Assembly: GCF_000515395.1 (NCBI RefSeq)
Contig: NZ_KI911782.1
Coordinates: 1,837,090-1,901,089, forward strand
DNA: 64,000 bases
Direction of reading: 5' to 3'
DNA from: Jiangella gansuensis DSM 44835
GTDB lineage: Bacteria; Actinomycetota; Actinomycetes; Jiangellales; Jiangellaceae
Shown piece by piece: positions 37,644-39,058 of the stretch (positions are counted from its first letter, which is position 1; each line of letters begins with the position of its first letter). The notes under the pieces are model-generated. The model did not search any database. It was not told the origin of the DNA and worked only from the letters and a program-made list of their open reading frames with translations. Made by a program: the position numbers and the translations under genes.

Positions 37644-37687
37644 GTCAACTGAGGTTGACATCTGCAGCAGTGTCAGCCTAGGTTGAC
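37644..37687 (+). promoter_or_regulatory. Promoter with two palindromic operators for the HTH-ClpN operon
   Basis: TTGACA (37655-37660) and TAGGTT (37679-37684) are 18 bp apart, and the predicted start of transcription is the ATG at 37691. Box 1, GTCAACTGAGGTTGAC (37644-37659), overlaps the -35. Box 2, GTCAGCCTAGGTTGAC (37672-37687), overlaps the -10. The two 16-bp boxes have centres 28 bp apart and would allow strong repression, most simply by the HTH protein encoded next. Confidence 0.8.
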
Positions 37688-37690
37688 AGC

Positions 37691-37915
37691 ATGACCAGTT
37701 CCGATGCACGAGAAGCCCTCGACGCCGCCACCGCGGCCGTCGACGGCGACCCGCGGGTGGGCCTGCGGGCGGTAGCGGCGTTGCGCCGCCTGGTGGAGCG
37801 GCTCGAGGCGCTGCAGGTCGGCAACGCCCGCGACCAGGGGTGGTCGTGGGAAGAGATCGGGGCCGCTCTCGGTGTCAGCCGGCAAGCCGTGCACAAGAAA
37901 CACGCGAGGAGGTAG
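37691..37915 (+). CDS. Small helix-turn-helix DNA-binding protein
   Basis: A 74-residue protein. Residues 49-72 form a helix-turn-helix (WSWEEIGAALGVSRQAVHKK) of the kind used by compact autoregulators. The N-terminal half is a helical arm (LRAVAALRRLVERLEALQV) that may dimerise. The gene directly follows the two-operator promoter and is 4 bp upstream of the ClpN gene, with a GAGGAGG ribosome site for clpN inside its last codons. HTH plus free ClpN domain is an arrangement seen across actinobacteria. Confidence 0.85.
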   Translation: MTSSDAREALDAATAAVDGDPRVGLRAVAALRRLVERLEALQVGNARDQGWSWEEIGAALGVSRQAVHKKHARR

Positions 37916-37919
37916 CCCG

Positions 37920-38531
37920 ATGTTCGAGCGGTTCACCACACAGGCCCGCGACACCGTCGTACAGGCACAGCAGGAGGCGCGGGAGCTCCACCACCGCTGG
38001 ATCGGCACCGAGCACCTGCTGCTCGCCCTGCTGCGCCAGCCGGACGCACCCGGCGTCGCCACCCTGACCCGCCTCGGTGTGACCGCGGACGCCGCGCGCT
38101 CGGCGGTGACCACCGTCGTCGCCGCCGATGCCGGTGGCCCGCTGGACGGCGAGGACGCCGAAGCGCTGCGTTCGCTCGGCATCGACCTCGACGAGGTGAC
38201 GCGGCGAGCCGAGGCGACCTTCGGCGAGGGAGCACTGGACAGCCCGCCGGAGGCCGATCGCGGCCGGCGCTCCGGGCTGCTGCGGCGGCTGCTGCCGTCG
38301 TCGGACGCTGCGTACGGGCACATCCCGTTCGTACCGCGAGCCAAGAAGGCCCTCGAACTGTCCCTGCGCGAAGCGATCGCGCGGAAGGACAAGGAGATCG
38401 GCACCGAACACCTCGTGCTGGCGCTGTTGCGCGGCGACGACAAGCTCACCCTCGGGGTGTTCCGGCACCTCGGCCTCGAGCCCGGCGTCGTCCGCGACGA
38501 GGTGGCCAGCGACCTGCGCCGGGCGGCCTGA
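37920..38531 (+). CDS. Stand-alone Clp N-domain protein (ClpC2-like)
   Basis: A 203-residue protein made of Clp N-terminal repeats only, without AAA ATPase parts. The first repeat is FTTQARDTVVQAQQEARELH followed by IGTEHLLLALL (residues 4-40). The second is FVPRAKKALELSLREAIARK followed by IGTEHLVLALLRGDD (about residues 138-178). Mycobacterial ClpC2 (Rv2667) has this form and binds cyclic peptides that attack ClpC1, acting as a sponge. A similar protective role here is inference. The stop codon lies in a tandem-repeated stretch. Confidence 0.88.
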   Translation: MFERFTTQARDTVVQAQQEARELHHRWIGTEHLLLALLRQPDAPGVATLTRLGVTADAARSAVTTVVAADAGGPLDGEDAEALRSLGIDLDEVTRRAEATFGEGALDSPPEADRGRRSGLLRRLLPSSDAAYGHIPFVPRAKKALELSLREAIARKDKEIGTEHLVLALLRGDDKLTLGVFRHLGLEPGVVRDEVASDLRRAA

Positions 38532-38613
38532 GCCAGCGACCTGCGCCGGGCGGCCTGAGCCCGGGCGGCCTGAGCCCGGGCGGCCTGAGCCCGGGCGGCC
38601 TGAGCCCGGGCGG
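38505..38613 (+). repeat. Tandem repeats duplicating the 3' end and stop codon of the ClpN gene
   Basis: A 27-bp unit ending in CGGGCGGCCTGA occurs twice (38505-38531 and 38532-38558), followed by three 15-bp units GCCCGGGCGGCCTGA (38559-38603) and a partial one. Both unit lengths are multiples of three, so each brings another in-frame TGA, five in all. Confidence 0.9.
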
Positions 38614-38617
38614 CTGG

Positions 38618-39058
38618 TCAGACGTCGACCGGGTCCAGCCGGAACACCGGGTGGCGGCCGGCCTCGGCGGCGAACCGCTCCGGCGGGTCAGCGGGCTTGG
38701 CGTCGAAGTACGGCCTGGTCACCGGCTCGAGGCGGGCGTAGCGCTTGAGGACGGGGCCGCTCTGCGCGGCGTCGCACTCCACGGTGACGTAGGTGTCGCT
38801 GCGCCGGCCGCGGGTCAGCGTCACCCGGCCGGCCGCGCGCACGTTGCGCACCCAGTCGACGACGCCGTAGGGCGCCACCAGCCAGCGCTGGCCGCCGCTG
38901 CGCATGACCCGCACCGGAGTGGTGCGCGGCTGCCCGGTGCGCCGTCCGGCGACGGTCAGCAGTGCATACGCCGACGGCGCCACGCCGGCCCTCAGTGCCA
39001 CCGTGATGGCCGCGTTGCCGGCCCGGCGCAGCGCCGTCGTCCGATACATCTTGGCCAT
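38618..39058 (-). CDS. Deazaflavin (F420)-dependent nitroreductase-family protein
   Basis: A 146-residue DDN-type split-barrel protein. It shows YALLTVAGRRTGQPRTTPVR and then WLVAPYGVVDWVRNVRAAG, matching the F420H2-dependent reductases of which mycobacterial Ddn is the model. The cofactor is expected to be F420, an actinobacterial hallmark. The ATG at 39058 gives the start MAKMYRTTALRR, and a GTG at 39064 is possible. It ends next to the tandem repeats of the convergent ClpN gene. Confidence 0.85.
   Translation of the reverse strand: MAKMYRTTALRRAGNAAITVALRAGVAPSAYALLTVAGRRTGQPRTTPVRVMRSGGQRWLVAPYGVVDWVRNVRAAGRVTLTRGRRSDTYVTVECDAAQSGPVLKRYARLEPVTRPYFDAKPADPPERFAAEAGRHPVFRLDPVDV

What the first reader, a model, noticed from the sequence alone, without database searches (positions are those of the whole stretch)
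37644..38531. HTH plus stand-alone ClpN operon with twin operators laid over the promoter
Two near-identical 16-bp palindromes (GTCAAC-n4-GTTGAC type) cover the -35 and the -10 of an excellent promoter that starts on the ATG of a 74-residue HTH protein. The next gene is a ClpC2-like N-domain protein. The layout suggests a tight autoregulatory switch that releases a Clp-decoy under stress or on exposure to cyclic-peptide antibiotics.
Basis: partly seen in the sequence, partly recalled or inferred. Interest (0 to 1): 0.65.

Follow-up and report, generated by a model that had tools for sequence, protein, structure and literature searches.

The report
Two-gene ClpC2-like self-regulating switch
This is an unfused, two-gene relative of the known mycobacterial ClpC2 self-regulating decoy: a doubled recognition site is laid over the promoter of a small DNA-binding protein whose neighbour gene encodes a decoy copy of the Clp protease's drug-binding domain, and comparison with relatives suggests that the small protein, not the decoy domain, reads the DNA.

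Summary
In Jiangella gansuensis two 16-bp boxes (37644-37659, 37672-37687) carry the -35 (TTGACA) and -10 (TAGGTT) of a putative leaderless promoter at the ATG of a 74-aa HTH gene; a 203-aa stand-alone double Clp_N gene follows 4 nt after its stop. The layout is published for mycobacterial ClpC2 (Taylor 2023), where both parts are one protein. Here they are two genes and the box spacer is 4, not 5 bp. Strict 4-bp twin boxes occur in 128 of 393 class genomes (reversed-pattern control zero). Of 145 sites whose DNA I held, 129 precede the HTH gene, 106 of these with ClpN downstream. Operator base 5 (A or G) follows HTH residue 66 (A or S/T) in 120 of 121 distinct proteins, though relatedness is not excluded; the ClpC2 CTD arginine R189, said to bind DNA, is present in 25 of 103 split ClpN. 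So the HTH most likely reads the operator; the solved ClpC2 N-domain fragment stops just before the recognition helix. Fifteen further sites stand before ABC exporters, hydrolases or DUF998 proteins, one in the window's own genome. Cyclomarin-type induction is plausible but untested; ecumicin and ilamycin/rufomycin analogues did not induce ClpC2 in M. tuberculosis. New variant of a known kind.

The parts
37644..37659 (+). operator box 1, GTCAAC-n4-GTTGAC; its right half carries the -35 (TTGACA 37655-37660)
37672..37687 (+). operator box 2, GTCAGC-n4-GTTGAC; carries the -10 TAGGTT 37679-37684
   Evidence: TA at box positions 8-9 in 82 of 129 box 2 against 12 of 129 box 1
37655..37684 (+). putative leaderless promoter TTGACA-N18-TAGGTT
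   Evidence: sequence; box gaps 11/12/13/10 in 47/70/11/1 of 129 sites, i.e. spacers 17/18/19/16
37691..37915 (+). 74-aa HTH protein, predicted operator reader
   Evidence: AlphaFold2 mean pLDDT 92.8, helices 3-15, 21-48, 53-60, 64-71
37880..37903 (+). codons 64-71, presumed recognition helix; codon 66 (37886-37888) is Ala, the residue that co-varies with operator base 5
37906..37912 (+). Shine-Dalgarno-like GAGGAGG for the ClpN gene, inside the end of the HTH gene
37920..38531 (+). 203-aa stand-alone double Clp_N protein (ClpC1-NTD-like); F2 (37923-37925) and F137 (38328-38330) align with the cyclomarin Phe pair of ClpC2; R150 with R185, A154 with R189

Best explanation
A split ClpC2-type autorepressor. 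The HTH protein, as a dimer, binds both boxes and so covers -35 and -10 of its own leaderless promoter. The ClpN protein, encoded 4 nt downstream, is the unlinked sensor half: it pairs with the HTH and carries the hydrophobic pocket that in ClpC1/ClpC2 binds cyclomarin. When the pocket is filled by a Clp-directed peptide or by misfolded protein, repression is lifted and the cell floods itself with ClpN, which soaks up the ligand before it reaches ClpC1. Shown here: boxes, promoter-like hexamers, gene order, conservation, operator travelling with the HTH gene, co-variation with the presumed recognition helix. Inferred: dimer, repression rather than activation, HTH-ClpN contact, the ligand, the sponge role.
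For: Twin n4 boxes before the HTH gene in 129 of 145 sites held (118 of 134 in loci fetched by pattern). First in-frame start 2-4 nt after box 2 in 120 of 129. Protein-first: relaxed twin boxes in 28 of 30 unnamed and 80 of 80 named loci, ClpN within 1 kb downstream in 28 of 30 and 80 of 80. Boxes also stand before HTH genes followed within 1.1 kb by an ABC exporter (9) or a beta-lactamase-family protein (6) instead of ClpN. Operator base 5 against HTH residue 66: A goes with 0-1 G in 103 of 103, S/T with 2 or more G in 17 of 18 (cut at 2 chosen). It is the top HTH column (z 25.7; z 21.4 against 14.5 for the best of 172 ClpN columns). n5 boxes go with fused ClpC2 in 44 of 51 sites, n4 with none fused of 145. 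By the first in-frame start codon ClpN begins at -1 to +8 of the first base of the HTH stop codon in 92 of 103 loci, 33 of them at -1. Fused ClpC2 is published to behave so (PMC10030653, passages and sections 7, 11).
Against: No binding, expression or induction data for any split system. Relatedness is not excluded as the source of the residue-66 signal: only 1 independent pair on supported branches, 6 on the best tree; one Thr66 protein has no G; the best ClpN column (F137) also associates strongly, as clade effects would. HTH-ClpN contact was not tested. Taylor et al. report weaker EMSA binding of the CTD R185A/R189A mutant, which favours a DNA role for the CTD; the R185 equivalent is kept in 78 of 103 split ClpN. 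The Phe pair is lost in part (F2 in 88 of 103, F137 in 76 of 103), so not all split ClpN can bind cyclomarin the known way.
Confidence: 0.62

Rival explanations
1. The HTH is a plain autorepressor with its own or no ligand; ClpN is only cargo (drug sponge or holdase) and takes no part in sensing.
For: The same operator and HTH occur without ClpN downstream: 23 of 129 HTH sites, one of them cut by a contig end (L067) and one locus (L091) counted twice. A 74-aa HTH with a 28-residue helix might dimerise by itself, as the ClpC2 N domain does (PMC10030653 section 7).
Against: HTH and ClpN go together in 106 of 129 sites and are one protein in fused ClpC2, where ligand on the Clp_N part relieves repression (published).
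Confidence: 0.25
2. The ClpN part reads the DNA, as proposed for the ClpC2 C-terminal domain (helix 174-189, R185/R189), and the HTH only dimerises.
For: Published R185A/R189A EMSA and in vivo effect (PMC10030653 section 11, read).
Against: R189 equivalent is R in 25 of 103 split ClpN and Ala in the window, and ranks 71st of 172 ClpN columns for operator type; boxes persist where another partner follows; box spacing and base 5 follow the HTH. In the paper the R185A/R189A mutant binds less efficiently than wild type, and R57A, an N-domain mutant that the authors class as dimerisation-deficient, derepressed more than the Msm counterpart of the double mutant (4.6-fold against 2.0-fold; section 11).
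Confidence: 0.05
3. A toxin-antitoxin pair: the HTH is a RelI-like antitoxin and ClpN its toxin.
For: RelI (9SDC) is the best PDB match of the HTH profile, E 7.7e-10, and its authors see some RelI homologues as derived from ClpC2 (PMC13284704, passages read).
Against: ClpN has only the Clp_N match in Pfam, none of the six ORFs scanned here is of a toxin family, and the gene order is HTH first, unlike RelS-RelI.
Confidence: 0.03
4. The HTH activates the promoter (sigma-region-4-like) instead of repressing.
For: Weak sub-threshold Sigma70_r4 matches.
Against: Boxes cover the -10 and -35 themselves, where a bound dimer would block polymerase; the fused homologue is published as a repressor.
Confidence: 0.05

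Closest known systems
ClpC2 of mycobacteria (Rv2667 type), Taylor et al. 2023, PMC10030653
   Same: Clp_N double repeat homologous to ClpC1 NTD; twin GTCAAC/GTTGAC operators over -35 and -10; start just after box 2; N domain of the same HTH family (A1 profile hits 8ADA, E 0.0015).
   Different: One fused protein against two genes; operator spacer 5 against 4 bp; fused type keeps R189 (12 of 12) against 25 of 103 in split.
RelI antitoxin (9SDC), PMC13284704
   Same: Homologous HTH (profile E 7.7e-10).
   Different: RelI faces the RelS toxin; the authors found no likely cis elements such as inverted repeats and no strong evidence for DNA binding (passages read). No toxin family among the six ORFs scanned here.
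ClpC1 N-terminal domain
   Same: Best PDB matches of the window ClpN (E 1.6e-28).
   Different: No AAA+ module; longer stretch between the two repeats; part of the split family has lost pocket residues.
Streptomyces 'ClpC2' (two mBio papers, search listing only)
   Same: Name only.
   Different: There ClpC2 is listed as a Clp-ATPase, not this protein.

Membership tests
ClpC2 (fused autorepressor/decoy) | ClpC1-NTD-like double Clp_N without AAA+ module | tested here: met
ClpC2 (fused autorepressor/decoy) | N-terminal HTH/dimer domain fused to Clp_N in one chain | tested here: not met
   separate ORFs in different frames, stop at 37913-37915; 0 of 145 n4 sites fused
ClpC2 (fused autorepressor/decoy) | twin operators CGTCAAC-n5-GTTGACG over -35/-10, leaderless | tested here: not met
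   same half-sites and layout but spacer n4; n5 sites: 44 of 51 fused
ClpC2 (fused autorepressor/decoy) | cyclomarin-contact residues F96, F172, E181 | tested here: met
   F2, F137, E146 in the window protein by alignment
ClpC2 (fused autorepressor/decoy) | binding to own promoter, release by cyclomarin | not testable with these tools
   needs EMSA and RT-qPCR
HTH family of ClpC2/RelI | profile similarity to 8ADA and 9SDC | tested here: met
   (E 0.0015 and 7.7e-10); helices 53-60 and 64-71 in the model
HTH family of ClpC2/RelI | fold match to solved HTH proteins | tested here: inconclusive
   Foldseek best E 1.7; VIA-align top Z 6.2 to Fis, under the stated trust level
RelS-RelI toxin-antitoxin | adjacent RelE-superfamily toxin | tested here: not met
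   the flanking genes are a PPOX F420 oxidoreductase and an F420H2_quin_red family protein

The most novel reading that the evidence does not exclude
Across Actinomycetota there is one family of small HTH readers whose operator is the promoter itself (two palindromes that hold -35 and -10) and which are plugged into interchangeable partners: a Clp_N drug/unfolded-protein sensor-sponge, MsbA-like ABC exporters, beta-lactamase-family and alpha/beta hydrolases, DUF998 membrane proteins. Together they would form an inducible resistance regulon against Clp-directed or other peptide antibiotics, with paralogous circuits in one genome insulated from each other by spacer length (n4 against n5) and by one recognition residue (66). 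ClpC2 of mycobacteria would be the fused special case, and its DNA-reading part is its N-terminal HTH, not the C-terminal domain as published.
Probability: 0.35. Interest if true: 0.75.

Novelty: new variant of a known kind. Interest (0 to 1): 0.58.

Why it matters
That makes the question directly testable with two small proteins of a non-pathogen. It also gives a searchable operator that points to exporters and hydrolases, hence to candidate inducible resistance genes against Clp-targeting antibiotics, and a candidate one-residue specificity switch of use for building orthogonal promoters.

Tried and rejected
Rejected: ClpN as DNA reader (R189 equivalent not Arg in 78 of 103, boxes where another partner follows). 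Toxin-antitoxin (no toxin family among six ORFs scanned). E. coli-type promoter scan (none found). Foldseek gave no match at E <= 0.001; VIA-align top rows are Fis at Z 6.2, not trusted; 8ADA and 9SDC were not among the 50 rows shown by either. The supported-branch test of co-variation had one pair and cannot reach significance. A first control of random 165-nt windows gave 20 of 5,500 hits; it had excluded only strict sites, so true sites with a mismatch probably counted as control; the per-locus recount found no second site in any of the 110 loci. Literature: the split HTH-ClpN pair and the HTH nature of the ClpC2 N domain were sought. Of five ClpC2-mentioning papers whose text I searched for HTH words (PMC10030653; PMC12913811; PMC13284704; PMC2905415; PMC6265470) only PMC13284704 speaks of an HTH region in ClpC2; the other listed papers were not opened, and nothing on the two-gene form was seen in the listings. 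The library holds open-licence papers only.

Caveats of counts: listings were cut, so 145 and 51 sites are those whose DNA I held, not all. The 145 sites lie in 144 loci (L091 has three boxes and counts twice); 11 of them, all HTH+ClpN, were held only through protein-first loci. 'ClpN', 'ABC' and 'bla' mean a profile hit within 1.1 kb downstream; in L041 the ABC gene lies 849 nt on, behind another gene. The profiles for exporters and hydrolases were seeded after seeing those loci, so the partner classes are post hoc; Pfam was run on 4 of the 5 alpha/beta hydrolases, 2 of 3 DUF998, 2 of 6 bla and 3 of 16 ABC proteins. L318 (two of the 51 n5 sites) is one fused-type locus with three boxes that falls in two frames; L140 stays unexplained; L067 is cut by a contig end. 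Genomes overlap. In one search, 103 of 106 HTH+ClpN loci gave a usable ClpN. One search used 121 distinct proteins of 128 aligned of 129; one search used 50 of 102.

Full report
WHAT IS THERE. The window lies at G000:C1:1837090-1901089 of a single-contig genome of 5,585,780 bases. The two boxes, the -35 and -10 inside them, the ATG, the 74-aa HTH gene and the 203-aa ClpN gene are at the stated places. A GAGGAGG motif in the end of the HTH gene stands 7 nt before the ClpN ATG. Box 2 is one base off a perfect palindrome. The E. coli-type promoter scan sees nothing; the -10 is of the actinobacterial TANNNT kind (recalled).

NOT CHANCE. The strict pattern GTCARY-n4-RYTGAC twice with 10-13 nt between was found in 128 of 393 class genomes with zero hits of the reversed pattern, and in 48 of 396 phylum genomes (partly the same genomes), again with zero control hits. 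I held DNA for 145 unique sites. 129 sit before a small HTH gene: 106 with ClpN downstream, 9 with an ABC exporter, 6 with a beta-lactamase-family protein, 8 with other or unclear neighbours. Twelve have no HTH but stand before an ABC exporter (7) or an alpha/beta hydrolase (5). Four were left, of which three begin a DUF998-type protein 3 nt after box 2 (Pfam on two of the three) and one (L140) is unexplained. Counting only sites in loci fetched by pattern, it is 118 HTH of 134. From the protein side, 28 of 30 unnamed and 80 of 80 named HTH loci have relaxed twin boxes.

THE OPERATOR IS THE PROMOTER. In 120 of 129 HTH sites the first in-frame start codon lies 2, 3 or 4 nt after box 2 (23, 60, 37). 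TA stands at positions 8-9 of box 2 in 82 of 129 but of box 1 in 12 of 129, and the distance between boxes is 12, 11, 13 or 10 in 70, 47, 11 and 1 sites, which puts the -10 18, 17, 19 or 16 nt from the TTGACA of box 1. The same asymmetry holds for the n5 sites (box 2 44 of 51, box 1 1 of 51). So the two boxes seem shaped by RNA polymerase as well as by the regulator.

THE KNOWN RELATIVE. Taylor et al. 2023 (PMC10030653; abstract, sections 7 and 11 and passages read) describe this layout for ClpC2: operator CGTCAAC-n5-GTTGACG, in many species twice, over -35 and -10, apparently leaderless, ClpC2 repressing itself, cyclomarin lifting repression, ClpC2 acting as a sponge. They call the N domain (8ADA, residues 4-72) a dimerising four-helix bundle and place DNA binding in the C-terminal domain (R185, R189). 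I find that the N domain belongs to the same HTH family: the profile of 21 HTH proteins finds 8ADA at E 0.0015, the match ending at chain residue 72. A fused homologue aligns over its first 61 residues to 8ADA 12-72 and then goes on with TKQAAQKRF, the counterpart of the window's SRQAVHKKH. The crystallised fragment therefore ends just before the presumed recognition helix. The RelI paper of 2026 (PMC13284704, passages read) did note an HTH region shared by RelI and ClpC2; in the passages I saw it is not linked to ClpC2 operator binding.

WHICH PART READS THE DNA. Four observations point to the HTH. (1) The boxes stay when ClpN is not downstream (23 of 129 HTH sites; one cut by a contig end and one locus counted twice). 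(2) Spacer length follows the HTH type: 12 of 12 fused loci have n5 boxes; 44 of 51 n5 sites lie before a fused gene (plus two rows of one frame-split fused-type locus), five beside other genes, among them a methyltransferase and FAD monooxygenases; none of 145 n4 sites is fused. Both types coexist in G068, G160, G195, G142 and G151, although the n4 boxes there are single or degenerate and missed by the strict pattern. (3) Operator base 5 follows residue 66: all 103 proteins with Ala66 have 0 or 1 G in the four half-sites, 17 of 18 with Ser/Thr66 have 2 to 4, one has none. This column tops all HTH columns (z 25.7, eta2 0.84, 69 non-redundant proteins), and in the head-to-head set of 50 it stands above all 172 ClpN columns (z 21.4 against 14.5). 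(4) The ClpC2 R189 equivalent is Arg in 25 of 103 split ClpN and ranks 71st for operator type; R185 is kept in 78 of 103 and ranks 29th. Against: relatedness can inflate (3). On the tree there are 5-6 changes, but only one independent pair on supported branches. The best ClpN column is the pocket Phe F137, which hints that paralogues changed operator and ligand pocket together, or is simply a clade effect. The published R185A/R189A result still needs an explanation, for instance non-specific backbone contacts.

MECHANISM. Best reading: HTH dimer on both boxes shuts the promoter; ClpN, encoded just downstream and in many relatives overlapping the HTH stop (33 of 103 at -1), is the sensor and sponge. 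The window ClpN keeps both pocket phenylalanines and the Glu (F2, F137, E146). Dimer, repression and the ligand are inferred from fused ClpC2. For the ligand, PMC12913811 (passages read) reports that an ecumicin analogue and ilamycin E2 bind ClpC2 but do not raise it, so cyclomarin-like compounds or misfolded proteins are the better guess.

REGULON. The window's genome has one more strict twin site, G000:C1:2841501-2841543, 4 nt before an alpha/beta hydrolase gene that is frame-broken in this assembly and has no match at E <= 1e-20 in the 11 other genomes of the genus searched. Similar stand-alone targets elsewhere are ABC exporters (best NCBIfam matches MsbA-related, below cut-off), alpha/beta hydrolases and DUF998 proteins. 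This makes an inducible resistance regulon conceivable; the partner classes were defined after seeing them, and no substrate is known.

VERDICT. Real, well conserved, and a new two-gene variant of a known kind.

Noticed in passing
G000:C1:2841501-2841543 (L068 3002-3044): Second strict twin box in the window's genome, 4 nt before an alpha/beta hydrolase whose reading frame is broken in this assembly; no match at E <= 1e-20 in the 11 other genomes of the genus searched.
   Followed up: partly
window 38505-38614: Tandem repeats at the end of the ClpN gene: a 27-bp unit holding the last codons and stop, 3.1 copies, overlapping a 15-bp unit, 6.6 copies; as RNA, 38520-38640 folds somewhat better than shuffles, z -2.3.
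   Followed up: partly
   Followed up: partly
L111, L112, L114, L115, L121, L129, L133: MsbA-like ABC exporters under stand-alone twin boxes in family code f17; exporters of the same profile follow the HTH gene in family code f36.
   Followed up: partly
L316, L315, L288: n5 (ClpC2-type) twin boxes beside FAD monooxygenases (L316, L315) and a methyltransferase (L288) without a fused ClpC2: possible trans targets of ClpC2.
   Followed up: no
G204, G126, G323: Two split HTH-ClpN systems in one genome with different operators (GTCAGC-type and GTCAGT-type): perhaps insulated paralogues.
   Followed up: partly
L140 (G426): Strict twin site with no recognised HTH, ClpN or regulon gene beside it.
   Followed up: no
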